A stretch of DNA of 14,385 nucleotides, from contig CATJRT010000204.1 of NCBI GenBank assembly GCA_949742895.1, positions 1 through 14,385 of the forward strand, read 5' to 3'. This stretch comes from an uncultured Eubacteriales bacterium (GTDB lineage Bacteria > Bacillota_A > Clostridia > Oscillospirales > Oscillospiraceae). Position 1 is the first letter of the stretch. Every line of letters begins with the position of its first letter. Positions 1,456 to 13,661 of the stretch are shown piece by piece. The notes under the pieces were generated by a model. The model searched no databases and was not told the origin of the DNA. It saw only the letters and a list, made by a program, of their open reading frames with translations. A program made the translations under genes and the position numbers.

Positions 1456-2820
1456 ATGGATAATCAACTGGTATGGCAGGAAGGGTTCAACATCGGCGTG
1501 GACCTGATCGACCGGGAGCACCAGCGGCTGTTCAAAATCATCAATAAGCTGTTCGCGTTTCAGAAAGAAGAAAAGGACAGCCAGTGGATCAGCCAGGAGG
1601 GGATCAAGTACTTCAAAGGTCATGCAATGAAGCATTTTGAGGACGAAGAGGAGTACATGGCCTCCATTGGTTATGAAGGATTGGAGCAGCATAAGCGGAT
1701 ACACCGTGGGTTCCGGGAGAATACGCTTCCTACGCTGGAGCAGGAGCTGGAGCAGACGAACTATTCCCAGGATGCACTGGAGCATTTTCTGGGTGTCTGT
1801 GCCGGGTGGCTCATTGGACACACCCTGACGGAGGACCAGGCCATGACGGGGAAGCAGGAGGGAAAGTGGGAAAACCTGCTGCCCGGCGAGGAGCTTGCGG
1901 CCATGAAAAAGGTGATTGTTCAGCTGGTGTTTGATATGTTCCATCTGGAGTCCCAGCTGATCAGCGACGCCTATGGCGGAGAAAAGTTCGGGCGGGGGAT
2001 TTATTACCGGCTGGCCTACGGGACGCAGGGAGATGAAAAGCGGCAGGAGATCATCATGGTCTTTGAGGAAAAGCTGCTTATCAACACGGTGGGCAAGATC
2101 ATGGGCATCCAGACCAACAAGCTGGACAATATGCTGATGCACGCCGCCCGGTATACGGCGCGGCAGTTTGTGGGCCGGATTGTGGAGCAGCTTCCGGACT
2201 TGGGCCTGTATGAGCTGAAGGAGGAAAACCTTCTGTCCTATGAGCAGTTCCGAAAAATATTCGAGCGGGAGAATTTACAGGTCAGTCTGCTGTTCAACAC
2301 AAGTGGCGCGGGATATTTTGCCTACTGCGCCATTGCCCCCCACCTGCTGGAAAAGGGTGTAGGCACCCCCATCGAGGCAGAGAACGCCATGGACGAGGTG
2401 CAAAAATACCTGTCCAAACGGGAGAAACAGGAAGAAGAGGGAAGCAAAAAGCCGAAGGTGCTTGTGGTGGACGACTCTGCGACCATCCGGTGCAGCATGA
2501 AGCAGCTTCTGGAGGGAGATTATGAGGTTTCTCCGGTGGAATCCGGGGTGGCTGCTATACGGGCCATCACGCTGACCCGGCCGGACCTGATCCTGCTGGA
2601 CTATGAGATGCCGGTGTGCGATGGGCGGCAGACGCTGGTCATGCTGCGCTCGGAGAAGGAGTTTGCGGACATCCCAGTGATTTTCCTCACCGGCCGGGGA
2701 GATCCGGAGAGCGTGCGGAGGGTGATGGATTTAAAGCCGGAAGGATATCTGCTGAAATACTTAAAGCCTGAGGAGATCAAGAAAAAAATTGACAATTTTT
2801 TCGAACGGAAAAAGGTATAG
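1456..2820 (+). CDS. Bacteriohemerythrin - CheX-like - receiver domain fusion protein
   Basis: A 454-residue cytoplasmic protein with no signal peptide or membrane segment. Residues 1-130 are a bacteriohemerythrin domain with all seven di-iron ligands visible: H22, H60, E64, H79, H83, H122 and D127. It should therefore bind O2 (family knowledge). Residues about 145-300 resemble the CheX chemotaxis phosphatase fold, but at the usual ExxN catalytic site the sequence appears to read Y233 and R236, so phosphatase activity is unlikely. Residues 333-454 are a receiver domain with acidic pair D339/D340, phospho-acceptor D382, T412 and K434. The proline that normally follows the lysine is Tyr here. 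There is no DNA-binding or GGDEF output. The ATG at 1456 follows a GGAGGAGG ribosome site. The protein probably senses oxygen and integrates a phosphorelay signal through protein contacts. Its partner is not in the window. Confidence 0.88.
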   Translation: MDNQLVWQEGFNIGVDLIDREHQRLFKIINKLFAFQKEEKDSQWISQEGIKYFKGHAMKHFEDEEEYMASIGYEGLEQHKRIHRGFRENTLPTLEQELEQTNYSQDALEHFLGVCAGWLIGHTLTEDQAMTGKQEGKWENLLPGEELAAMKKVIVQLVFDMFHLESQLISDAYGGEKFGRGIYYRLAYGTQGDEKRQEIIMVFEEKLLINTVGKIMGIQTNKLDNMLMHAARYTARQFVGRIVEQLPDLGLYELKEENLLSYEQFRKIFERENLQVSLLFNTSGAGYFAYCAIAPHLLEKGVGTPIEAENAMDEVQKYLSKREKQEEEGSKKPKVLVVDDSATIRCSMKQLLEGDYEVSPVESGVAAIRAITLTRPDLILLDYEMPVCDGRQTLVMLRSEKEFADIPVIFLTGRGDPESVRRVMDLKPEGYLLKYLKPEEIKKKIDNFFERKKV

Positions 2821-2896: not shown

Positions 2897-5800
2897 TTAC
2901 ACCGTGTCATTCGCCTTGGGTGCCACGTTCTCATTGAAGCGCATCAGGATTGCAGCGACCTGAGCGCGGGTGGCCATGGCGGCGGGGCTGAGGGTGGTGG
3001 TGGAGGTGCCGCGGATCAGGCCGACCGCATTGGCCCAGGACATGGCCTCGACGGCGTATTCGCTCACCATACCGGCGTCGGTAAAGGCGGACAAATCAGC
3101 GCGGGCGCTGACATCGTAGCCGCGAAGCTGGGCATAGCGGTACAGGATTGCCACAAACTGCTCGCGTGTGACGTTGTCCTCGGGGCCAAAGCTGCCATTG
3201 CCGTAGCCTTTGATGATGCCCTGCTCAGCGGCCCAGTTGACGGCGTCGGTGTAGTACTTGTCGGCCAGCACGTCGTTAAAGCTGCCGGCAGCGGCGCTGG
3301 GCTTGTTCTCCATGCGGTGGAGGATGGTGACGACCATGCCGCGGGTGGTGTTGGTGCCGGGGGCGAAGCTACCGCCGCCAACGCCGTCCATTATGCCGTT
3401 GTCATAGACGAACTGCACCGCGCTGATGTACCAGGCGCCCTCCGCCAGGTCGGCGAAGATGGTTTCTACTGGTGCGCCGCTCAGGGGAGGATTGTCGGGA
3501 TCGGTGATGTCCTCGCCGGGGTCTTCGGAGGGCTCGGGGGTGCTGGGAATGACGATTTCAGAGATAAAGATCTCCCGGTTGACGGTCAAAGTGCCCAGTT
3601 CCTCCTGGATTTCGTAATTGTCCGGGGACGTTTCACCCCAAATCAGCTCGTAGGTGTTCTCGGAGGAGCCGATTTCGGTTTGCGTACCAGTTACGTTCAG
3701 GGTGACTTGCCCGGCGTCTGCCTCAACAAGGCCCTCTACGTGGCCTTCGGCGGTCAGGGGCTGGCCGTCATAAATCTTGACGGCACTCTCGGTGGTGACG
3801 ATCAGAAGTGCCTTTTCAACAGTCAAAACGCCCAGTTCTTCGCTGATTTCATAGTTATCAGCGGGACGGTAGCTACCGGTGGGGCCGGAATATGTCTTGA
3901 AGGTCAGAGTATAGGTGTTTTCAACGGCGCCGGCGTCAGTCAGGGAGCCGGTGGCCTTGAAGCTGTAAACCTCGTCCTCATCGCCGGCCATCAGACCTGC
4001 CAGCTCACATTCAGCGGCGGTAAGCGCAGTGCCGTCATAGGTCTTAACGGCGCTGCCCGTTTTGACAGTCAGGGGAGCCTTGGCGATGGAGAAGGTGTAG
4101 GGCTCACTGGCAGCCACGGTTTCGCCGTCTGCACGCAGCGTATACGTTACGGTGTAGTCGCCGGCGTTTCTGGCGTAAGAGGCGGTGACGGCATTGCCTG
4201 CCCGTACGTAGCTGGCATCCACCCGCACAGTATGACCGTTCCACTCGATGGAATCGGCGTTGGGCGTGACCTCGAAGGTTTCGGCCTTGCCGTTGCCGTC
4301 GGTAGCGGTGACGGTGACGGTGTTGACTCTGTGGTTCTGGCCGTCATAGATGCCGTTCAGTGCATTGACATTGGCCTCGTCCACATCCAGGGTCCAGTTG
4401 ATCTGCTGGCTTTGATAGACGGCGGTCAGAGTGACGTACTTTGTGCCGTCTGCATTGCTTTGAAGGATCGGGCTCAGTGCGCCCACTTCAACCTTCCGGC
4501 CGGTGCTGTCCTTCCAGTAGGCGACGGAGTCGCCGTCCTTCTCGTAGGACTTTACCTTGTAATAAGGGCTGCCCTTGCTGTAGTAGTAATCGGTCTGAAT
4601 CCCGGCACCGTCCGTATCCAGGTAGGTCGCGCAGGCGTCCACATACTTGGCAACCAGCTCACCGATGGTCTGCTTATTTTTCGCGCTTGTAGTCTCTGTA
4701 ATCTTCAGGGTAGCCTTAGCGGTAACAAAGGTGGTCTGGTCGTTGTATACGCCGGTGGCCTCGAAGGACTCCTTCACAGGATCGAGCTCGACTGTGTAAG
4801 TACCCTCGGAAAGCTCCAGTGTACCCAATTCCGGGTAAGCTGTGCCGGTAGCGCCATGCGGCTTGGAGGCTTGGCCAGCGAGGATTTCGTCACCAGCCTC
4901 GTTGCGAACAACATAGTTAATCACATAGTCATCTGTCACGAAGTAGTGATTATTGTTGGAAAGGATGCTGCTGGTAGAGACCTTCAGCCGCAGGGTAAAC
5001 ATCTTGGCGCCGCACAGCTCACATTGGTTCTTGCTGTCCAGGGTGTGCTCTTGGTGGCCTGCCACCGGAGCGCCGCAGTCATCGCACACGCCGTTGTGAG
5101 CGCCGTTGCCGTTGGTGGTATAGGTCACGTTTTCGTGGCTGCACTCAGCCCACACGGCGTAGAGGGTTCCTTCCCAGGGGGTCAGCGCAGTGTGTTCAGT
5201 TACAGTGTACTCACCGCCCGGCTGATAAACAGCGGCTGTGGTGTCGCTGTTTTCCGACCAGCCCAGGAAGCTGTAGCCCACCCGGGTGGGAATTTGATCG
5301 GGGATGGTAAAGACAGCCTTATCATTGTTGATGTATACGCCGTCTCCAAAAGAGGTGCTGCTCATGTTGGCAATGAACTGCGGATCGGGAACATTCTCCA
5401 CGCCTTCGCTGTTGCCGTTATAGTTCAGCTTGAGGATGCGGGACCAGTTTTCAATGGAACCGGCCTTCACCGTACCATCCTCTTCGATATTGCCCAGGTC
5501 CAGTACATAAGTGGTCTCATAGCTTGGTTCAAAGTCCAGCGTCCTCGGGTTATTATAGAGCTCATGACCCAAATGGCCCTTCAAATTCCCCTCTGTAAAG
5601 GTGATAGTATATACCTTGCCACTGGAAAGCTCTGCATCGACCAGGAACTTGACATATAGGTAAGAGCCGATTGCCTTGGCAGCCTCCTCGGTATCATAGA
5701 TCGAGCCTGCAGTGCAGGACCGGATGTACCGGGAGGCATCGATCTGGGTCGCAGGCACCACCACGTTGCCGTCCTCATCGGTGATCGTGTAGTACAGGTT

Positions 5801-8338
5801 AAGCGCTGTCCTTGTCGTATCCCTGGCATAGCTCACAGGATAATAATGCAGGTTTACATACACGCCCAGGAAAATGGCGTTCGCAGGCACCGCAGCGATG
5901 TTTGCGGCACGTGTCAAAGCACTTCCGTTGGTAGCATAAGTATTGTTCGCAGTGCGCTTGAACGAGCTGTTAAGCGTACCGGCTGCACTGATGTCGTTTG
6001 CAGTGAAGGTTCTTGTCACCCAGATGACCGTTTTACCGCTGCCGTCCACAAAACCGGTCAGTTTGTTTTCGCCGACTACGACAGGCTTCACCGGAGACGC
6101 GGCCTGGTTTTCCACCTTATACAATGCACCGGGGTCGCCCACAACGGTGATCTTGTACAGCAGGGTAACGCCCTCATCGGAAACCAGGATGGTCTCGTCC
6201 ATGTTGGCCGGGATGTACGCATTGGCTGCGGACACAATATTCCAGTCGGGTCCGTCCTCCATGGAGCGGGTGACAAGTTCGTGGGTGAATTCACCCAGCT
6301 CAGATTTGTTGACCTGAACGCCGTTGGCCCGCACAGTGAAGCTGCTGGCCTCGTCCTGAACAGATACGGTGTTGTAAAGTTTAACAGGGGAATAAGACTG
6401 CTGAGTTGCCAACGTATAGTCGTCGCGGTTGCTCTTTGTCTTGTCGTACCTGGGAAGGGTAAACCTTGCCGTCAAGGTCAGTTTGCCGGAAGGCACAGTC
6501 ACGGTCCAGGTAAGGCCATCCGTATTGGCGGCAATTTCCGTTCCGTCTTCGGCGTAAAGTTTGATGGGCTCATAGGGATCGCCATATTTGTCCACATACT
6601 TATTCGCGCCAAAGATAACTTTAGAAGTGCCGGCAGTTCCATCCCTCAGCACGTCGGTCAGAATAACCTCCTTCTCGCTGCTGCTCAGGTTGGAGATTTC
6701 AATAGTCCATTCAATGGTCTGGGCCATCTTGACCGCAGGTGCGGAAGCAGTCTGAGCTACAGTCAGGTAGTTCAGTTGGGGAACTTCCTCAATCTCTGCG
6801 GTGTTACAGATGGTGCAGGAACGGGCCTTTTTACCGGGGGCATCATAAGTTGCCTCTGTGGTGACGGTCCAATCGGTATAGTCGTGTGCGCCGGTGGCAG
6901 GGATCACGTCACGGCCTTCCTGAACCTTGCCGCAGATGGAGCATACCACGCCGGCGGTCAGGCCGGAATTCCCACAGTTGGCGGGCTGTTCCTCAACATC
7001 TACCCAGTTGTGGGGGCAGTGTGCGGCTTTGAGGGCCACGTTGCCGCTCCCGGTGTTAGCGGTAAACTGTTTGCTATAGACACTGTCATCATCCAGCTTA
7101 TCGCCCCAGCGGGCAGCGCTGCCGCTGTCGCCAGAGCCGTCGTAATACCAGCCGGTGACGGCTTCGCCGTTGGCCAGGGTCCAGTCGCCGGTGCTGCTCA
7201 GAGTCAGGCTCCTGGTAACATAGATATCGTCGCCCATGCCGTCGGCGGTGTTGCCGTAAACCGCGCCGCCGTTTACAGTCAAGTCTTTCGCATAAATTGC
7301 ACCGCCCTTGTCGCCGGCGGTGTTGCCTGTGATGGTGCCGCCGGACACAACGATTTTGCCGCCGCTGCCAGCCCAAACGGCACCGCCGTTGCCCGTTGCG
7401 GTATTGCCTGTGATGGTGCCGCCGGCAATCGTGAGGGTGGCTGTGGACTGACTGCCGTTCACATCAATTGCGCCGCCGATGGTAGAGCCATAGCTCTCTC
7501 TGCCGGCACCTCCGGTGATGACGCCGGTGCCGGCGCTGTCCTCGATGATGAGGTCATAAGTTCGAATACCGGCGCTGCCGAGAGGCCAGAAGGTGATGGT
7601 CGCGCCGCCATTGCCGGTGATGGTGTGGCCGTTCAGGTCGAAGGTCAGCTTGAAGCTGGTCTGCCCCAGCGCGATGAGGGCCCTGACATTGACGCTTTCA
7701 TTTACATCGTCCAGCAGAGTGAGGCTCCACTCGGCAATACCATCATAATAGTGCGCATTATACACTGCATCCAGCGCGTCCTGCAAAGTATCATAGTATC
7801 TGCCGTTTCCTTCGGCCTCCACATAGGCGGCTGCTTCATCCTCGCTGACCACCTTTTCCCAACGGGCGTAGAGGTTCAGCGTTGCTGAGGTGCTGGAGAC
7901 GTACGTGTCTCCGTCCTGATAACTATCGCCGGAAGCATCGGCTGTCTGTGTAGTCCAGCGGACCAGCTCATAGCCCTCGTAGCTGCAATCATCGGGGCAA
8001 ACCAGTATCGCTGAGGATCCCTTTGCAGAGACTGTTTTTACCGAAGTGCTGCCGTCAGGGTAATTGTAGTGATAATTTACCGTGATGGTCGGCGTTGTCG
8101 GCTTTGCCGCTGCTGCCGGCTCAACGGCCCCGGCGCCAGCCGCTTCAAGGTCCACGCGGTCTGCGTTGAGCTCCTCCTTTGCCGCGTCGGGCGTCAGCTC
8201 CTCTGCGGCGGCTTCTCCCACTGCTTCTGCGTGGCCGTGCTCATCCGGCTCGGCTGCGAACGCACTGACGCTGAGCAGGCTGAGGACCATGCTCATGGCC
8301 AGCAGGAGGGCCAATGCTTGTTTCAGTTTTTTTGCCAT
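2897..8338 (-). CDS. Large secreted SLH-domain surface protein with beta-helix, InlB-like and MBG/YDG-like repeats
   Basis: A 1813-residue exported cell-wall protein. Residues 1-28 form a signal peptide (MAKKLKQ, a long hydrophobic run, AFA cleavage site). An InlB_B-like unit ends at YARW (157-160). Residues about 230-370 are right-handed beta-helix repeats with GGTITGNT and GGAIY motifs. CxxC modules follow (C441, C455, C466/C469, C508/C511), then a DUF11-like region (about 525-635), a second InlB-like unit ending YAVW (1060-1063), and a second CxxC module (C1066, C1085/C1088, C1106/C1109). Tandem MBG/YDG-like repeats lie at 1421-1586, and a Pro/Glu/Asp linker at 1598-1623. Three SLH domains (about 1627-1795) carry TRGM, TREQ and TRAQ at 1665, 1724 and 1790 and should hold the protein on pyruvylated wall polymer (family knowledge). 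An upstream in-frame extension of 47 codons was rejected: ATG 8336-8338 follows AAGGAG by 9 bases and begins the signal peptide. Adhesin or matrix function is inferred. A cyclic di-GMP riboswitch precedes the gene. Confidence 0.9.
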   Translation of the reverse strand: MAKKLKQALALLLAMSMVLSLLSVSAFAAEPDEHGHAEAVGEAAAEELTPDAAKEELNADRVDLEAAGAGAVEPAAAAKPTTPTITVNYHYNYPDGSTSVKTVSAKGSSAILVCPDDCSYEGYELVRWTTQTADASGDSYQDGDTYVSSTSATLNLYARWEKVVSEDEAAAYVEAEGNGRYYDTLQDALDAVYNAHYYDGIAEWSLTLLDDVNESVNVRALIALGQTSFKLTFDLNGHTITGNGGATITFWPLGSAGIRTYDLIIEDSAGTGVITGGAGRESYGSTIGGAIDVNGSQSTATLTIAGGTITGNTATGNGGAVWAGSGGKIVVSGGTITGNTAGDKGGAIYAKDLTVNGGAVYGNTADGMGDDIYVTRSLTLSSTGDWTLANGEAVTGWYYDGSGDSGSAARWGDKLDDDSVYSKQFTANTGSGNVALKAAHCPHNWVDVEEQPANCGNSGLTAGVVCSICGKVQEGRDVIPATGAHDYTDWTVTTEATYDAPGKKARSCTICNTAEIEEVPQLNYLTVAQTASAPAVKMAQTIEWTIEISNLSSSEKEVILTDVLRDGTAGTSKVIFGANKYVDKYGDPYEPIKLYAEDGTEIAANTDGLTWTVTVPSGKLTLTARFTLPRYDKTKSNRDDYTLATQQSYSPVKLYNTVSVQDEASSFTVRANGVQVNKSELGEFTHELVTRSMEDGPDWNIVSAANAYIPANMDETILVSDEGVTLLYKITVVGDPGALYKVENQAASPVKPVVVGENKLTGFVDGSGKTVIWVTRTFTANDISAAGTLNSSFKRTANNTYATNGSALTRAANIAAVPANAIFLGVYVNLHYYPVSYARDTTRTALNLYYTITDEDGNVVVPATQIDASRYIRSCTAGSIYDTEEAAKAIGSYLYVKFLVDAELSSGKVYTITFTEGNLKGHLGHELYNNPRTLDFEPSYETTYVLDLGNIEEDGTVKAGSIENWSRILKLNYNGNSEGVENVPDPQFIANMSSTSFGDGVYINNDKAVFTIPDQIPTRVGYSFLGWSENSDTTAAVYQPGGEYTVTEHTALTPWEGTLYAVWAECSHENVTYTTNGNGAHNGVCDDCGAPVAGHQEHTLDSKNQCELCGAKMFTLRLKVSTSSILSNNNHYFVTDDYVINYVVRNEAGDEILAGQASKPHGATGTAYPELGTLELSEGTYTVELDPVKESFEATGVYNDQTTFVTAKATLKITETTSAKNKQTIGELVAKYVDACATYLDTDGAGIQTDYYYSKGSPYYKVKSYEKDGDSVAYWKDSTGRKVEVGALSPILQSNADGTKYVTLTAVYQSQQINWTLDVDEANVNALNGIYDGQNHRVNTVTVTATDGNGKAETFEVTPNADSIEWNGHTVRVDASYVRAGNAVTASYARNAGDYTVTYTLRADGETVAASEPYTFSIAKAPLTVKTGSAVKTYDGTALTAAECELAGLMAGDEDEVYSFKATGSLTDAGAVENTYTLTFKTYSGPTGSYRPADNYEISEELGVLTVEKALLIVTTESAVKIYDGQPLTAEGHVEGLVEADAGQVTLNVTGTQTEIGSSENTYELIWGETSPDNYEIQEELGTLTVNREIFISEIVIPSTPEPSEDPGEDITDPDNPPLSGAPVETIFADLAEGAWYISAVQFVYDNGIMDGVGGGSFAPGTNTTRGMVVTILHRMENKPSAAAGSFNDVLADKYYTDAVNWAAEQGIIKGYGNGSFGPEDNVTREQFVAILYRYAQLRGYDVSARADLSAFTDAGMVSEYAVEAMSWANAVGLIRGTSTTTLSPAAMATRAQVAAILMRFNENVAPKANDTV
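3581..4078 (-). repeat. Two tandem MBG/YDG-like repeat domains inside the surface protein
   Basis: Residues 1421-1507 and 1509-1586 of the surface protein align by eye. Each starts with a hydrophobic strand, then GSAVKTYDG or ESAVKIYDG, a GL(M/V) turn and an ENTY segment, and ends in NYEI-x-EELG-x-LTV. The second copy is slightly shorter. A more divergent third copy may begin at NGIYDGQNH (about 1328-1336). Such domains act as stalk-like spacers in bacterial surface proteins (family knowledge). Confidence 0.7.
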
Positions 8339-8364
8339 ACTTTCATTCTCCTTTTCAGAGTGAT

Positions 8365-8465
8365 GAAATTCTGGCAGCTGGGCTGGCATGGCGGTTCCCC
8401 TTACCGCTGTAGCTCCCTGGCTTTGCGTCCCGCCCTTTCGAAACGGTTTGCTCTTTTCAAAATTC
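8365..8465 (-). promoter_or_regulatory. Cyclic di-GMP-I (GEMM-I) riboswitch
   Basis: Read on the minus strand, the leader contains GCAAACC (8445-8451), a GAAA tetraloop (8436-8439) closing a short stem, and GGGACGCAAAGCC (8419-8431). This is the signature core of the class I cyclic di-GMP aptamer. The second helix is GCGG (8404-8407) with CCGC (8391-8394), followed by the ATGCCAGC segment that stands where the consensus has a U-G-G-C-A-G-C-type strand. P1 closes the fold: GAATTTTG (8458-8465) with CAGAATTTC (8365-8373), one bulged base. The aptamer ends 11 bases before the AAGGAG ribosome site (8348-8353), with no terminator hairpin between it and the start codon. Control of translation is therefore the simplest inference. 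Whether ligand turns the gene on or off cannot be read from the sequence. Confidence 0.88.
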
Positions 8466-8487
8466 CGCTGGGGACACACAGGGGAAT

Positions 8488-8530
8488 TGCTCGCCTTGGG
8501 CGAGCAGGGAAAAGGCGTACGCCTTTTCCC
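8488..8530. repeat. Two abutting perfect inverted repeats in the surface-protein leader
   Basis: TGCTCGCC (8488-8495) and GGCGAGCA (8499-8506) form an 8-bp hairpin with a 3-base loop. Directly beside it, GGGAAAAGGCGT (8507-8518) is followed at once by its exact reverse complement (8519-8530), a perfect 24-base palindrome. Both lie in the leader transcribed ahead of the riboswitch. Neither has a T run typical of a terminator. A leader-RNA structure, a protein-binding site or a dispersed palindromic repeat are all possible. Confidence 0.75.
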
Positions 8531-8643
8531 AAAATCAGGCTTGTCAATATCGACGTCCGGATGCGTTGCGGCGTATCAGTCCGGCTCTTCTGCGATTTAA
8601 TGCACAAAAGTGAGCGGGTATAACAAACTTGATTTTCCTGGTA

Positions 8644-8672
8644 ATTATACCAAGCCGTAACTCGGATTTCAA
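8644..8672 (-). promoter_or_regulatory. Strong sigma-A-type promoter of the surface-protein gene
   Basis: On the minus strand, TTGAAA (8667-8672), a 17-base spacer and TATAAT (8644-8649) preceded by TGG give a near-consensus extended -10 promoter. Transcription from about 8637 creates a leader of roughly 300 bases holding the two hairpins and the riboswitch. The surface-protein gene can therefore be expressed independently of the methionine operon upstream. Confidence 0.8.
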
Positions 8673-8840
8673 GTGGTTTTGTATCTTGAGATAAAATTTT
8701 GTAACAAATACCGACTTAACCGTCCTGCTTCCACATTGCTTGCCAAGTTGCGGGGACGTGAGGTTTGCTATTTTTCCCGACCGAGTGAAAATGGGACAAA
8801 AATGAATGTCAAACGGGCTCAGGCTGCAGCGGATCTCCGG
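8673..8840. other. Intergenic stretch with no recognised feature
   Basis: These bases lie between the end of the methionine operon and the surface-protein promoter. They are more AT-rich than the flanks. No clear intrinsic terminator for the methionine operon was found. The best pairing on the minus strand, GACA with TGTC around a T-rich loop near 8800-8815, is too weak to call. Read-through from the operon into the surface-protein leader is therefore possible. Confidence 0.4.
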
Positions 8841-10604
8841 TTACAGTTTTTTCAGAATGCGGGTCATCAGGGGGGTCCGCTTAAAGGGCGTCATGAGGTA
8901 GAGACCGTCTGTATAAGGGGCAATCTCCGCCGCGATGCGGGTAGAGATTGTCGCCGCCAGGGCTTCCGCCTCGTCCCTGTCCTTCCCTTCGTACAGCGTG
9001 ATGATCTCATCGCAGATGTGCATACCGGAAATTTCATTGTTGAGGAAGCAGGCGTTTTTATGGCTCACCACAGGGAGGATGCCGCCCAGGAGCTTGCCCT
9101 TCAGGACGCTCCTGGCCAGCTTCAGGTTTTCCAGCGCTTCCCGGGACAGGACCGGCTGGGTCAGGAAGCCTGCGGCGCCGCTGGCTTCCTTTTCCAGGGC
9201 CAGCTTGAGCTGTATGTCAAAGTTCCGGGCGTTCAGGTTCAGTGCGCCGAAGATGAGGAAGGGGGTGTGGAGGACCGTGCCGTTGAGGCCGCTGACATAG
9301 CGGATGAGCTGCCGGGAGTTGAAGTTGAACACGCTTTTGACCTCGTCCCGGCTGTCGGTAGGGATGGGATCACCAGTGACCAGCAGCACGTTGTGGACGT
9401 GCTCGATGGAAAGCCCCAGCAGTAGGGCCTTGGTGGCGTTCAGGTTCCGGTCCCGGCAGGTCATGTGGGGCAGGACCTCCATCCCCAGCTCCCGCTTGAT
9501 TTTGCAGGCCAGCAGGGAGCTATCCGCCCGAGGTCGGCCGATGGGGTTGTCGGCGATGGTGACAACGTCCGCCCCTGCGCTGCGCAGGGCGCGGATGCCG
9601 TCCAGGAAAAAGCCGATGCCGTCGTCCAACGGAGGGTCCAGCTCCACGGCGATGACCCGCTGTCCCCGGTCCAGCTTTTCCGCCAGGGGGTTGATGCCGG
9701 GGACAGGACGGGGGCCCGGTTCCCGGCTGGACTGGAAAGAGACGGCGGGGAGGACGGGAGTGGCCAGCGCGGCGGCGGCCCCGGCAATGTGGGCGGGGGT
9801 GGTGCCGCAGCAGCCGCCCACGATGGCCGCGCCGGCCTGAACAAGCTGGGCCAGCTTCTGGGCGAAGTAGTCCGGCGTACCCTGGAACGCCGTCCGGCGG
9901 CCCAGCACAGTGGGATAACCGGCGTTGGGCATGACGGAGAGGATCGCGCCGCCGGTGTCCAGGGTGCGGATGTACTCCAACAGGTGGTGGGGGCCGGACA
10001 TACAGTTGAAGCCTACGGCGTCCACCTCGTCCAATGCGGCGGTGCGCCGGAACAGGGCCTGTCCGGACAGGCCCTCACGGGTGATGCCGTCGAAGGACAC
10101 GGCGAAGGAGACCAGAAGAAAGGCGTCGGGGCACCGGGCCTTCAGGTGCGCGGCCAGCTCCGGAACGCCGTCGTCGGTGGGCAGGGTCTCCACCAGGAAG
10201 TGGCGCACGCCATGCTCCAGAAAGATATCCGCCTGACGGTAATAGTTTTCTCTGCGGCAGAGGGCCTTTTCCTCCGGCGCGGGCCCTATGTCCGCGAACA
10301 CGTAAGCGCCGAAGGGGGCGGCGCAGTCCAGGGCCAGGCGGCAGGCGGATTCGATGATCTGCCGGGCCAGGGCCTCGTGCCCCTGGGCCAGATCTGCTCC
10401 GGCGGTGAAGGTGTTGGTCTTGACGGCGCGGCAGCCGGCCTCCAGATAGGCGCGGTGGATGGCGGCGATCTCCTCCGGATGGTCCATGCAGGCCAGTTCG
10501 CAGCGCTCGCCGGCCCGGCCGGACAGGGCGGCAAAGCAGGTGCCCATGGCTCCGTCGAACAGCAACGGGGTTCCGCCCTTCAAAAACGTACGGATATCGG
10601 TCAT
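8841..10604 (-). CDS. Bifunctional homocysteine S-methyltransferase / methylenetetrahydrofolate reductase (YitJ-type)
   Basis: A 587-residue cytoplasmic fusion like Bacillus subtilis YitJ. Residues 1-280 form the homocysteine S-methyltransferase barrel: the start motif FDGAMGT lies at 16-22, and the zinc cysteines are C201 in GFNCMSG and C265/C266 in GGCCGTTP. Residues about 310-587 form the MetF-type flavin reductase that reduces methylene-THF to methyl-THF. Visible motifs are VELDPP (320-325), HMTCRDRN (380-387) and TGDP (410-413), followed by a C-terminal GLYLMTPF region. No cobalamin domain is present. The ATG overlaps the metH stop in ATGA and follows AAGGAAGG, so translation is likely coupled to metH. 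In this operon it should supply methyl-THF to MetH. Whether its N-terminal domain also uses S-methylmethionine or another donor is unknown. Confidence 0.93.
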   Translation of the reverse strand: MTDIRTFLKGGTPLLFDGAMGTCFAALSGRAGERCELACMDHPEEIAAIHRAYLEAGCRAVKTNTFTAGADLAQGHEALARQIIESACRLALDCAAPFGAYVFADIGPAPEEKALCRRENYYRQADIFLEHGVRHFLVETLPTDDGVPELAAHLKARCPDAFLLVSFAVSFDGITREGLSGQALFRRTAALDEVDAVGFNCMSGPHHLLEYIRTLDTGGAILSVMPNAGYPTVLGRRTAFQGTPDYFAQKLAQLVQAGAAIVGGCCGTTPAHIAGAAAALATPVLPAVSFQSSREPGPRPVPGINPLAEKLDRGQRVIAVELDPPLDDGIGFFLDGIRALRSAGADVVTIADNPIGRPRADSSLLACKIKRELGMEVLPHMTCRDRNLNATKALLLGLSIEHVHNVLLVTGDPIPTDSRDEVKSVFNFNSRQLIRYVSGLNGTVLHTPFLIFGALNLNARNFDIQLKLALEKEASGAAGFLTQPVLSREALENLKLARSVLKGKLLGGILPVVSHKNACFLNNEISGMHICDEIITLYEGKDRDEAEALAATISTRIAAEIAPYTDGLYLMTPFKRTPLMTRILKKL

Positions 10605-12964
10605 CCCAACACCTTCCTTGCAATTTCTACGGATTGGCGGGCGTCCTTGGCGTAGCAGTCCGCCCCGATCTGGCGGGCATACTCCGGTGTGACTACCGCG
10701 CCGCCCACCCAGACTGCCGGAGGCCGGGGCAGGGCCTTCAGCAGACGGACTGTTTCCTCCATGGCGGGCAGGGTGGTGGTCATCAGGGCGGACAGGCCCA
10801 CCAGGCGGATGTTCTGCTCTGCGGCGGTCCGGGCGACGGTTTCGGGGGGGACGTCCCGGCCCAGGTCCAGCACGTCATAGCCGTAATTCTCCAGCACGGT
10901 TTTGACAATGTTTTTTCCGATGTCGTGGATGTCGCCACGGACCGTGGCGACAATAATTTTTCCCTTTTTGACCGGTGCGCCCCCCTTGTCCGTGATGGAG
11001 GCGCGGACGGCCTCAAAGACCGCTTGGGCGGCCTGGGCGGCGCTGAGGAGCTGAGGGAGAAAGACCGTTCCCTGTTCATAGCCCTCGCCCACCTGGTCCA
11101 GTGCGGGGATCAGGTGGCGTTCCACCAGGTTCAGCTCGCTTTCCGCGTTCAGGGCCTGCTTGGCCAGACGGCCTGCGTCGGCCTTCAGGCCCCGGACGAT
11201 GGCCTCGTTCAGGGTCATCGCCGCGCTCTGGCCGGGAGCGGGCCGGGGGTCGGAGCCGCCCCCAGCGAACCGGGCCACATAGTCTTGGCACTGGCCGTCC
11301 TCCCCGGAGAGGACCCGAAAGGCGGCGACGGCGTCCAGCATTTCCCGCTGGTTAGGGTTGATAATGGGCAGGGTCAGCCCGGCGGCCAGGGCCTGGATCA
11401 GGAAGCTCTGGGTGATAAGGGGGCGGTTGGGCAGGCCGAAGGAGATATTGGACACGCCCAGCACCGTCTGGAGCCCCAGCTCATGCCGGACAGTGCGGAC
11501 GGCCTTCAAGGTTTCCGCAGCCTGGTCCTGCTGTGCGGAAACGGTGAGGGTCAGGCAGTCGATCCACACATCCTCCCTGGGAATGCCATAGGACAGGGCG
11601 GCGTCCAGGATGCGGCGGGCGATGGCGGTGCGGCCTTCGGAGGTCTGTGGGATGCCGTCCTTGTCCAGGGTCAGCCCTACCACGCAGGCGCCGTATTTCC
11701 TGACGGTGGGCAGGATACGCTCCAGCACCTCCGGATCGCCGTTGACAGAGTTTACCGCCGCCTTGCCGTTGTAGACCCGCAGGCCGGCTTCGACGGCGTC
11801 CGGATTGGAGGAATCAAGCTGTAAGGGCAGGGAGACGGCGCTTTGCAGTGTCTTGACCACCCGTGGCAGCATGGAAACTTCGTCCACGCCGGGAAAGCCC
11901 ACGTTTACGTCCAAAATGTCTGCCCCAGCCTCTTCCTGCTGGATGGCTACGTCCAGGATGTAGTCCAGGTCGTCCTCCAGCAGCGCCTGCTGGAAGCGTT
12001 TTTTGCCCGTGGGGTTGATGCGCTCGCCGATGACCCGTACGCCGTCCAGCCGGGTGGGAGTCGTAGGGGTACATACAAAGCTGCCGCCCGCATAACGGCG
12101 GGGGGCGGGAGCTTTTCCGGACAAAGCGGCCTTCAACTGCCGGATATACTCCGGAGAGGTGCCACAGCAGCCACCGAAGATGGTGACGCCGTATTCCAGG
12201 CAGGGGAGAAGGGCGGCGGCGAATTCCTCAGGACCCATATCGTAATGGCCGTCTACCGGGTCGGGAAGTCCGGCGTTGGGCTTGGCGATGACGGGCAGGC
12301 GGGTGTTTTTGCACAGCTCCTTCAGCAGCGGCCCAAGCTGGCCAGGGCCAAGAGAGCAGTTCAGGCCGATGGCGTCAGCCCCCAGTCCCTCCAGGGTGCG
12401 GGCCATGGAGGCAATGGTGCAGCCGGTGAAGGTGCGCCCCCCCTCGTCAAAGGACATGGTGACAAACGCCGGTAAACCGGAGTTTTCCTTGACGGCCAGC
12501 AGGGCTGCCTTGGCCTCGTAGAGGTCGGTCATGGTTTCGATGGACACCAGATCCGCCCCGGCCTGCTCTCCGGCCACGGCCACCTCCCGGAACAGCTCAT
12601 AGGCCCGCTCGAAGGTGAGGCTGCCCATAGGCTCCAGCAGCTCGCCCAGAGGTCCCATATCCAGGGATATCTTTACGTTCGTTCCGGTGGCAGCCCGTCT
12701 GGCAATGGCGATTGCGGCGGAAATTATCTCCTCCACGGTGTGGCCTGTGCCCGCCAGCTTGGGCGCGCTGGCCCCGAAGGTATTGGCGCAGATGATCTGG
12801 CTTCCGGCCTCAATATATTCCCGGTAGATGGAGTACATCAGATCCGGGTCGGTAAGGTTGACCAGATCCGGCCTGCCGCCGGGGGGCAGGCCACGCTGCT
12901 GGAGGACGGTGCCCATGGCGCCGTCCCAAATGACGATCCCATCCTGTAAAAAATCAATTCCCAC
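10601..12964 (-). CDS. metH: Cobalamin-dependent methionine synthase core, lacking the reactivation domain
   Basis: A 787-residue protein that transfers the methyl group from methyl-THF through cobalamin to homocysteine. Residues 1-285 form the homocysteine/zinc barrel (WDGAMGT at 13-19; zinc ligands C203, C266 and C267). Residues about 305-560 form the pterin-binding barrel (VIGERINPTG at 311-320, LQLDSSNP at 381-388). Residues about 580-660 form the helical cap, and 665-787 the B12-binding Rossmann domain with the DxHxxG motif (D678, H680, G683), S725 and GGAVV (754-758). It ends there, whereas Escherichia coli MetH (1227 residues) continues into an AdoMet reactivation domain. That function is encoded by the gene just upstream. 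The open frame extends 61 codons further, but GTG at 12962-12964 is chosen because GGAGG lies 8 bases before it and the conserved fold starts at once. It overlaps the upstream gene by 11 bases and the downstream gene by 4. Confidence 0.94.
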   Translation of the reverse strand: MGIDFLQDGIVIWDGAMGTVLQQRGLPPGGRPDLVNLTDPDLMYSIYREYIEAGSQIICANTFGASAPKLAGTGHTVEEIISAAIAIARRAATGTNVKISLDMGPLGELLEPMGSLTFERAYELFREVAVAGEQAGADLVSIETMTDLYEAKAALLAVKENSGLPAFVTMSFDEGGRTFTGCTIASMARTLEGLGADAIGLNCSLGPGQLGPLLKELCKNTRLPVIAKPNAGLPDPVDGHYDMGPEEFAAALLPCLEYGVTIFGGCCGTSPEYIRQLKAALSGKAPAPRRYAGGSFVCTPTTPTRLDGVRVIGERINPTGKKRFQQALLEDDLDYILDVAIQQEEAGADILDVNVGFPGVDEVSMLPRVVKTLQSAVSLPLQLDSSNPDAVEAGLRVYNGKAAVNSVNGDPEVLERILPTVRKYGACVVGLTLDKDGIPQTSEGRTAIARRILDAALSYGIPREDVWIDCLTLTVSAQQDQAAETLKAVRTVRHELGLQTVLGVSNISFGLPNRPLITQSFLIQALAAGLTLPIINPNQREMLDAVAAFRVLSGEDGQCQDYVARFAGGGSDPRPAPGQSAAMTLNEAIVRGLKADAGRLAKQALNAESELNLVERHLIPALDQVGEGYEQGTVFLPQLLSAAQAAQAVFEAVRASITDKGGAPVKKGKIIVATVRGDIHDIGKNIVKTVLENYGYDVLDLGRDVPPETVARTAAEQNIRLVGLSALMTTTLPAMEETVRLLKALPRPPAVWVGGAVVTPEYARQIGADCYAKDARQSVEIARKVLG

Positions 12965-13661
12965 AGTGATTTCCTCCCTTGCGCATGGAACAGGTTTCCC
13001 GCATCCGGCAATAAGCGCAGCCCCGGATACGGGCGGGCTGAGGCCTGTCCGACAGGCCGATGACCGCAGTGACGGATTTGACGGGGTTAAGCAGAAGGCT
13101 CTTTGTAACGTGAAGGCCCAGCCGCCGGGGGGTGTCCAGGGCGGCACAGAGGTCCGGCTGAAGGCTCAGGGGCAGGTCGCCGTAGCCCGGGCTGAACCGG
13201 TCGGTGAGAAAGCGGTCCGGGAACCGGGCGGCCAGCTCCCTCTCGGCGTCATCGCAGCCACTCTCCACATAGGCGCTGCCACAGGCGTCCAGGATGACGG
13301 CCTGGGCCATATCCCTGGCCTGTGCCGACAAAAGCATTCGGTCGAAGGCGGAGCCCAGTGTACAGGCCAACAGGACTGCCTGGCAGCACTGCGTCAGCAT
13401 ACGGTGGGCGGAGCTTCCGGTAAGGGTAACATTCGTTCCCATAAGACATATCTCCTTACCGGAAAAGGTCAGGTCAAAGACCCGGTAGGTATACCGGGGC
13501 CGAAGCTGCTTGACCAGCGCCTCCGCTGTGCTGCTGACCTGCTGCCGCATATCGTCTGAAGCGTTTGCTTCCGCGCCCAGATAGCGCAGCGCGTCTGAAA
13601 TGATTGGCTTGATAAGGCTCCCTCCCTCTGGCGGTACAGCCGTGTCTGAGCTATTATACAA
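12954..13661 (-). CDS. Methionine synthase reactivation (AdoMet activation) domain protein
   Basis: Up to 235 residues, matching the stand-alone activation-domain proteins that accompany short MetH in Clostridia and Thermotoga. They bind AdoMet and remethylate oxidised cob(II)alamin (family knowledge). Motifs seen are ALRYLG (24-29), RFSPGYGDLPL (155-165), the counterpart of the R-x-x-x-G-Y AdoMet motif, and KSVTAVIGLS (195-204). A C-terminal cysteine cluster (C215, C218, C224, C233) may bind metal. The left boundary is firm and overlaps metH by 11 bases. The start is doubtful. The only ATG/GTG/TTG near the conserved start is TTG at 13659-13661, but it adjoins a probable -10 box and has no ribosome site. 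A strong GGGAGGG lies further in, with ATC at 13611-13613 seven bases after it, so initiation there would give about 219 residues. It is the first gene of the operon. Confidence 0.85.
   Translation of the reverse strand: MYNSSDTAVPPEGGSLIKPIISDALRYLGAEANASDDMRQQVSSTAEALVKQLRPRYTYRVFDLTFSGKEICLMGTNVTLTGSSAHRMLTQCCQAVLLACTLGSAFDRMLLSAQARDMAQAVILDACGSAYVESGCDDAERELAARFPDRFLTDRFSPGYGDLPLSLQPDLCAALDTPRRLGLHVTKSLLLNPVKSVTAVIGLSDRPQPARIRGCAYCRMRETCSMRKGGNHCGN

What the first reader, a model, noticed from the sequence alone, without database searches (positions are those of the whole stretch)
8339..8465. Class I cyclic di-GMP riboswitch placed to control a giant SLH surface protein
The minus-strand leader shows the GEMM-I core (GCAAACC, GAAA tetraloop, GGGACGCAAAGCC), a closing P1 helix (8458-8465 with 8365-8373) and a ribosome site 11 bases after P1. 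The gene behind it is a 1813-residue wall-anchored protein. Known cyclic di-GMP switches often act on motility and adhesion genes, so this points to second-messenger control of surface attachment in this organism. The short distance to the ribosome site, and the lack of a terminator, suggest control of translation.
Basis: partly seen in the sequence, partly recalled or inferred. Interest (0 to 1): 0.7.

Follow-up and report, generated by a model that had tools for sequence, protein, structure and literature searches.

The report
Second-messenger RNA switch for surface protein
The stretch before this gut bacterium's giant surface-protein gene is a genuine cyclic-di-GMP-type RNA switch, and related bacteria suggest that without the signal it hides the gene's start codon by pairing it with part of the sensor itself, so that the signal would turn the protein on.

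Summary
Rfam c-di-GMP-I (RF01051) matches 8462-8370 (-) at 66.1 bits (cut-off 35), 31 nt before the ATG (8338) of a 1813-residue protein with three SLH domains; no terminator was found. Translational control is well supported and gains a predicted polarity, ON. Without ligand a hairpin (-16.2 kcal/mol) pairs the aptamer's UGCCA with UGGCA of the start and Ala-2 codons and encloses the Shine-Dalgarno; P1 of the bound form needs the same strand. In relatives 65 of 68 leaders of this type keep GGC at the start, against 13 of 62 signal-peptide-like controls and 1 of 17 leaders with another platform. Arm-swap and covariation tests agree. Caveats: in the predicted bound fold the Shine-Dalgarno stays mostly paired, and in longer RNAs the G of AUG too; A8452 replaces the usual selectivity G (Vc2 G20), so 3',3'-cGAMP is not excluded, though c-di-GMP is likelier. 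A member of a known class with a platform I did not find described. Nothing was tested at the bench.

The parts
8644..8672 (-). predicted sigma-70 promoter TTGAAA-17-TATAAT of the leader mRNA
   Evidence: consensus scan, 11 of 12, 0.3 expected by shuffling; start site not mapped
8370..8462 (-). c-di-GMP-I (GEMM-I) aptamer
   Evidence: Rfam RF01051 66.1 bits, E 2.3e-11
8458..8466 (-). P1 5' strand GGAAUUUUG, competitor of the hairpin's 3' arm for the shared strand
   Evidence: constrained fold; P1 pairing in 36 type A leaders, own arms -7.3 against permuted -5.7 kcal/mol, 0 of 5000 permutations
8452..8452 (-). A at the position equivalent to Vc2 G20 (ligand-selectivity base)
   Evidence: Rfam alignment, model G11 reads A; among 111 aptamers of 80 arrays: G 80, A 23, C 3, unread 5; equivalence to Vc2 numbering recalled, in line with PMC9262584 and PMC4933901 passages
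8365..8376 (-). shared switching strand UGCCAGAAUUUC: P1 3' strand (8373-8365) when bound, 5' arm of the hairpin when free; C8374 is the presumed ligand-pairing C (Vc2 C92)
   Evidence: folds; C92 equivalence recalled
8331..8376 (-). translational expression platform (type A): hairpin over Shine-Dalgarno and start codon
   Evidence: RNA model R1 54.1 bits, E 8.2e-10 (the window was one of the 17 training sequences); fold -16.2 kcal/mol for 8377-8331
8348..8353 (-). Shine-Dalgarno AAGGAG; GGAG 8351-8348 pairs with CUCU 8360-8357
   Evidence: sequence, folds
8333..8338 (-). start codon plus Ala codon AUGGCA; UGGCA pairs with UGCCA 8376-8372
   Evidence: fold; GGC kept in 65 of 68 type A leaders
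2897..8338 (-). regulated gene: 1813-aa surface protein, signal peptide (read by eye), three C-terminal SLH domains
   Evidence: ORF; Pfam PF00395 E 3e-29, sub-cut-off DUF11 and Flg_new

Best explanation
It is a class I (GEMM-I) cyclic dinucleotide riboswitch that acts on translation as an ON switch, most likely for c-di-GMP. Shown by sequence comparison: the aptamer, the masking hairpin, its conservation in relatives, and the sharing of one strand between hairpin and P1. Inferred: without ligand the aptamer's 3' end (UGCCA) pairs with the start codon and codon 2 (UGGCA), and the next stem closes over the Shine-Dalgarno, so ribosomes cannot start; ligand pairs with the C that otherwise holds codon 2 (Vc2 C92 equivalent, recalled), P1 forms with the shared strand, the start region opens and the SLH surface protein is made.
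For: Rfam hit; no terminator. Free leader 8470-8331: U and G of AUG unpaired 0.02 and 0.00; with aptamer and P1 imposed 0.96 and 0.98. GGC within 10 nt of the start in 65 of 68 type A leaders from 38 genomes (window counted as one): ATGGC 48, ATGATGGC 10, ATG[TC]TGGC 6, ATGAAGGC 1; controls 13 of 62 signal-peptide-like ORFs, 39 of 216 ORFs, 1 of 17 type B leaders (starts picked without using GGC). Own hairpin arms pair better than swapped ones: -17.6 against -15.1 kcal/mol, 0 of 20000 permutations, n=66. Inner helix 99.2% paired over 50 distinct sequences, with G-C to A-U (15) and U-A to C-G (5) double changes; whole structure 94.3% paired, slid controls 26-53%. In ten chosen genomes 26 of 26 sense matches of the platform model abut a c-di-GMP-I aptamer. 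ON control of adhesins by class I switches is known: Bc2-cap (PMC4933901), Vc1-gbpA (PMC4744006), passages.
Against: With P1 imposed GGAG stays mostly paired (unpaired 0.02-0.26), and in longer RNAs (to 8300) the G of AUG is also paired (0.05 and 0.00), the U free (0.90, 1.0). The free form is better by 8 kcal/mol for 8470-8331 (-41.0 against -33.0), by 10.5 and 18 for the longer RNAs, so ligand and tertiary contacts must pay or control must be kinetic. Only two pair positions show double changes, no more than shuffles give (361 of 500 reach 2); the outermost U-A pair is missing in 24 of 50; the GCC/GGC pairs cannot covary because the aptamer fixes GCC. A5 was fitted to the structure. RNAalifold on the plain alignment A1 found only 3 pairs, none of these helices. 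Class I switches tested in C. difficile were OFF (PMC6200980, passages).
Confidence: 0.68

Rival explanations
1. Same device, but the natural ligand is 3',3'-cGAMP (or both dinucleotides), because A replaces the selectivity G.
For: A8452. A at this place is commonly seen in variants that respond to c-AMP-GMP (PMC9481103, passage) and the position is called a selectivity factor (PMC9262584, passage).
Against: Bc2 of B. thuringiensis has A there and responds to c-di-GMP (PMC4933901, passages; cGAMP is not among the ligands named there). In G380 and G266, relatives with A at such a leader, 18 GGDEF matches showed D at the expected substrate position in 16, N in one degenerate domain, one not covered, none Ser. 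The window's own genome is not held, and other cGAMP synthases were not looked for.
Confidence: 0.13
2. Ligand turns translation OFF, as described for Vc2.
For: Class I switches in C. difficile functioned uniformly as OFF switches (PMC6200980, passages); Vc2 is called a translational OFF switch (PMC9262584, passage). The predicted bound fold keeps most of the Shine-Dalgarno paired, and in longer RNAs the G of AUG.
Against: The masking hairpin uses bases of the ligand site and of P1, so the bound form must lose part of it. A different leader type, Shine-Dalgarno 11-13 nt-gap leaders of 5 transglutaminase-like genes, is the arrangement one would expect for OFF.
Confidence: 0.11
3. Control is mainly by mRNA stability or Rho-dependent termination.
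For: No intrinsic terminator; such effects can follow lost translation (recalled).
Against: Conserved start-codon pairing would be hard to explain unless translation is affected.
Confidence: 0.08
4. A decayed aptamer that no longer switches.
For: A at the selectivity base; two of the other type A leaders with A there (G266_L151, G380_L173) have the weakest masking arms of 36 (-7.6 and -6.2 against a mean of -16.8 kcal/mol). No expression data.
Against: 66.1 bits with the other core motifs kept; the window's own arms are average (-16.7 kcal/mol) and the gene is open over 1813 codons.
Confidence: 0.06

Closest known systems
Bc2 RNA - cap, Bacillus thuringiensis (c-di-GMP-I)
   Same: class I aptamer with A at the place predicted to contact one guanine of the ligand, ON switch, adhesin target (PMC4933901, abstract and passages)
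   Different: Bc2 works by a transcription terminator; here no terminator and a start-codon hairpin
Vc1 - gbpA, Vibrio cholerae (c-di-GMP-I)
   Same: class I, positive regulation of an adhesin (PMC4744006, abstract and passages)
   Different: mechanism stated as unclear there, no apparent terminator or anti-Shine-Dalgarno; start codon more than 100 nt after the aptamer
Vc2, Vibrio cholerae (c-di-GMP-I)
   Same: translational class I switch in which P1 is decisive (PMC9262584, passages)
   Different: described as an OFF switch
pilM riboswitch, Geobacter metallireducens (cGAMP)
   Same: related aptamer, ON switch whose platform captures the ligand-pairing C, C75 (PMC9262584, passages)
   Different: transcriptional: the capturing strand belongs to a terminator, not to the start codon
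tandem c-di-GMP-I riboswitches
   Same: 347 doublets and 12 triplets reported (PMC9481103, passage); relatives of the window have such arrays
   Different: one aptamer in the window
SLH motif RNA (orphan riboswitch candidate)
   Same: lies before SLH-domain genes in Clostridia and others; its authors suggest c-di-GMP as a possible ligand (PMC6429828, section 13)
   Different: a separate motif; not compared here in sequence

Membership tests
c-di-GMP-I riboswitch (RF01051) | covariance-model score above the gathering cut-off over the whole model | tested here: met
   66.1 against 35 bits, positions 1-87 of 87
c-di-GMP-I riboswitch (RF01051) | ligand-pairing C and closing P1 helix | tested here: met
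   C8374 present, P1 9 bp possible; identity of the C recalled
c-di-GMP-I riboswitch (RF01051) | ligand-selectivity base (Vc2 G20): G usual, A known in a c-di-GMP responder (Bc2) | tested here: inconclusive
   A8452; Bc2 has A11 (PMC4933901)
c-di-GMP-I riboswitch (RF01051) | binds c-di-GMP | not testable with these tools
   needs in-line probing or ITC
cGAMP riboswitch (GEMM-Ib) | A at the selectivity position | tested here: met
   A8452
cGAMP riboswitch (GEMM-Ib) | selective binding of cGAMP | not testable with these tools
   needs binding assay
cGAMP riboswitch (GEMM-Ib) | cGAMP synthase (Hypr GGDEF) in the genome | tested here: inconclusive
   own genome not held; none among 17 readable of 18 GGDEF matches of two relatives
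translational riboswitch | alternative pairing masks Shine-Dalgarno or start codon; no terminator | tested here: met
   release of the Shine-Dalgarno on binding only weakly predicted
SLH surface protein | SLH domains above the Pfam cut-off | tested here: met
   three SLH, 101.2 bits against 20.8

The most novel reading that the evidence does not exclude
Gut Oscillospiraceae share a dedicated translational ON platform in which the ligand-contacting end of a c-di-GMP-I aptamer captures the start codon and codon 2, so that a second-messenger aptamer dictates the first codons (MA, MMA, MLA, MKA) of dozens of large surface proteins, while some of the same genomes (G214, G157, G206) place transglutaminase-like genes under an arrangement expected to act in the opposite sense.
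Probability: 0.65. Interest if true: 0.62.

Novelty: new variant of a known kind. Interest (0 to 1): 0.5.

Why it matters
The aptamer class and the adhesin-like target are known kinds. The platform seems new: a compact hairpin kept in many genomes, in which ligand and start region compete for one strand, leaving a mark in the coding sequence by which targets can be found. Bacillota riboswitches are reported to favour transcriptional platforms (PMC12452182, passage), so a large translational set is of interest. It predicts a c-di-GMP-induced surface-protein regulon in gut commensals and is testable with single-codon changes in a reporter.

Tried and rejected
Second aptamer near the window's leader: none at E up to 5. 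Whole genome of the window: not held. The MAFFT alignment A1 of 36 leaders gave no useful consensus fold (3 pairs) because the 5' arms were misaligned; arm-swap tests and a structural model were used instead. In one search the forced hairpin pairs had wrong indices (its last two rows are void); one search replaces it. One search read minus-strand loci unoriented; one search replaces it. Searches missed several GGDEF domains; one search read the rest. Apart from the window's own protein, no full-length ortholog of the SLH protein is among the 120 listed of 1084 hits (7976 candidates scored); the best is 82% over 12% of the query. Papers: the ten searches showed no listing that describes this platform; I saw listings, abstracts, passages and one section, so prior description is not excluded.

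Rows left out and selection: 17 of the 20 loci were taken to (L016, L017, L020 left out). Two sub-cut-off genus matches (G320:C253, G318:C5) were not fetched. The 40 family-level regions (50 arrays) were picked by hand from the listed part, partly because they looked like type A, so type frequencies are not representative. Of 130 arrays (80, 50) 85 had the start 24-52 nt after the aptamer and were classed: 68 A, 17 B. Type A means 'short gap and not type B'; it was not selected on GGC, and a few members (G201_L237) are type A by default only. Of the three type A rows without GGC, L121 is a wrong start call beside an ATGGC. The arm-swap test used 66 unique pairs of 68. One search kept 52 of the 87 matches. 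Control ORFs are mechanical (200 codons or more between stops, first start with a Shine-Dalgarno-like word). The ten genomes were chosen because they have riboswitches, at most 150 first-look candidates were scored in each, and some training sequences of R1 come from them.

Full report
Observation. The minus strand 8462-8370 is a c-di-GMP-I aptamer by covariance model: 66.1 bits, cut-off 35, E 2.3e-11, full length, the only Rfam hit at gathering threshold in the window. A promoter-like site (11 of 12) lies at 8672-8644 and no terminator-like site was found in 8300-8860. The gene starts at ATG 8338 and encodes 1813 aa with three SLH domains. A neighbouring gene (8844-10604) has 20 relatives in genome contigs, 46-74% identical, most titled Oscillospiraceae or other Clostridia MAGs; the best over the full length is 71%. 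The window's own genome is not held.

Ligand position. The base before GCAAACC is A8452, where the Rfam consensus has G. This is Vc2 G20 (numbering recalled; PMC9262584 equates Cd1 G11 with Vc2 G20). A here is commonly seen in variants that answer to c-AMP-GMP (PMC9481103). But B. thuringiensis Bc2 has A11 there and responds to c-di-GMP (PMC4933901), and the position is described as a selectivity factor rather than a hard filter. In the 80 arrays (111 aptamers, window included) the base is G 80, A 23, C 3, unread 5. In G380 and G266, which have A at a type A leader, 18 GGDEF matches showed the usual D in 16, N in one degenerate domain, one not covered, none Ser (the position is recalled from PleD and GacA). 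c-di-GMP is therefore likelier; cGAMP is not excluded.

Relatives. RF01051 is found in 5 of 17 genomes reached through the neighbour gene, in 85 of 300 of the family of G006 (82 over the cut-off) and in 39 of 86 of the genus that holds G002, G004 and G006 (two searches returned the same 86). I fetched the genus arrays. In 53 of 80 arrays, window included, the start codon is 24-52 nt after the last aptamer. By a loose pattern, all 65 type A proteins longer than 40 residues and 17 of 17 type B proteins look signal-peptide-like. Of 29 closed proteins of short-gap genus arrays, window included, 8 have SLH, 6 Flg_new, 6 VWA_2, 4 Cna_B, 4 GBS104-like, 3 FctA, 3 SpaA and 2 MucBP domains: surface and pilin-like proteins.

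Platform. In the window UGCCA 8376-8372 can pair with UGGCA 8337-8333, UUUCAU 8368-8363 with AUGAAA 8346-8341, and CUCU 8360-8357 with GGAG 8351-8348 (-16.2 kcal/mol for 8377-8331); most type A leaders of the genus fold alike. P1 of the bound form, GGAAUUUUG 8466-8458 with CAGAAUUUC 8373-8365, needs the same strand. Imposing aptamer and P1 on 8470-8331 frees the U and G of AUG (0.02 and 0.00 to 0.96 and 0.98), but GGAG stays largely paired (0.02-0.26). On 8470-8300 and 8540-8300 the U is freed (0.90, 1.0) while the G finds another partner in the coding region (0.05, 0.00). The free form is better by 8, 10.5 and 18 kcal/mol in the three RNAs.

Tests against chance. Of 85 short-gap leaders, 68 are type A and 17 type B (a CUUUGC-type element after the aptamer instead). 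GGC lies within the first 10 nt in 65 of 68 type A, 1 of 17 type B, 39 of 216 control ORFs and 13 of 62 signal-peptide-like controls (Fisher 1e-19 against the last, relatedness not corrected). It is reached through different N-termini: ATGGC 48, ATGATGGC 10, ATG[TC]TGGC 6, ATGAAGGC 1, which speaks for selection on RNA. Swapping hairpin arms between leaders loses 2.5 kcal/mol on average, none of 20000 permutations as good (n=66; likewise n=36). P1 arms: none of 5000 (n=36). On A3 (17 leaders, aligned without structure) 96.5% of cells pair against 22-45% when slid. On A5 (50 distinct, fitted to the model) 94.3% against 26-53%, with 20 double-changed cells against 6.6 shuffled; but the number of pairs with a double change, 2, is what shuffles give (361 of 500), and the outermost U-A pair is missing in 24 of 50. 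In 100 sources (659 kb, mostly riboswitch loci) the model's matches with E below 0.25 lie at aptamer leaders, some as antisense mirrors. In ten genomes chosen for their riboswitches 26 of 26 sense matches abut a c-di-GMP-I aptamer, plus 2 mirrors; G380 had none.

Mechanism. The free RNA hides the start region with the aptamer's own 3' end; ligand claims the C opposite codon 2 and P1 takes the shared strand. That predicts ligand = ON. Capture of the ligand-pairing C by the platform is known in Cd1 and pilM (PMC9262584), there by transcriptional elements. ON control of adhesins by class I switches is known (Bc2-cap; Vc1-gbpA). The same family carries leaders with the start 11-13 nt after the aptamer and the Shine-Dalgarno between (5 of 50 arrays), all five before transglutaminase-like proteins; I expect these to be OFF, but folded none of them.

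Verdict. A real class I riboswitch before a giant SLH protein, translational, probably ON, probably for c-di-GMP. Ordinary in class; the platform variant was not found described in ten paper searches of which I saw listings, abstracts and passages only.

Noticed in passing
window 8507-8530 and 8488-8506 (-): A perfect GTAC-centred palindrome (24 nt) directly followed by a second hairpin, between promoter and aptamer. Palindrome-plus-hairpin pairs also stand in a leader (L147) or inside the P3 of aptamers (L154, L170, and L025 of G006) in relatives, perhaps a small mobile element; the other GTAC palindromes were not placed.
   Followed up: partly
L043 5587-5962 and 10132-10507: Two copies of a triple aptamer array before two similar surface genes; the hairpin loop of the inserted element reads AGAA in one and TTCT in the other, as if inverted.
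   Followed up: no
L126, L128, L140, L142, L144, L148, L149, L153, L154, L157, L162, L164, L167, L168, L169, L170, L043, L051, L052: In 23 abutting aptamer pairs the 5' aptamer has G at the selectivity place in 23 of 23, the 3' one in 12 of 23 (A 7, C 3, unread 1). Perhaps paired sensors of different ligand preference; relatedness not corrected.
   Followed up: partly
L200, L203, L206, L222, L230: c-di-GMP-I aptamers with the Shine-Dalgarno directly after or in the P1 3' strand (by eye) before transglutaminase-like genes (PF01841 in 5 of 5): expected OFF switches.
   Followed up: partly
L142 5242-6108 and L144 7040-7900 (G343): Divergent genes with aptamers on both strands of one intergenic region.
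   Followed up: no
window 1456-2820 (+): Hemerythrin domain and response-regulator receiver in one protein.
   Followed up: no
window 8841-13661 (-): Homocysteine methyltransferase-MTHFR fusion, a methionine synthase-like protein that ends in its B12 domain, and a separate 235-aa protein with a sub-cut-off match to the methionine synthase activation domain.
   Followed up: no
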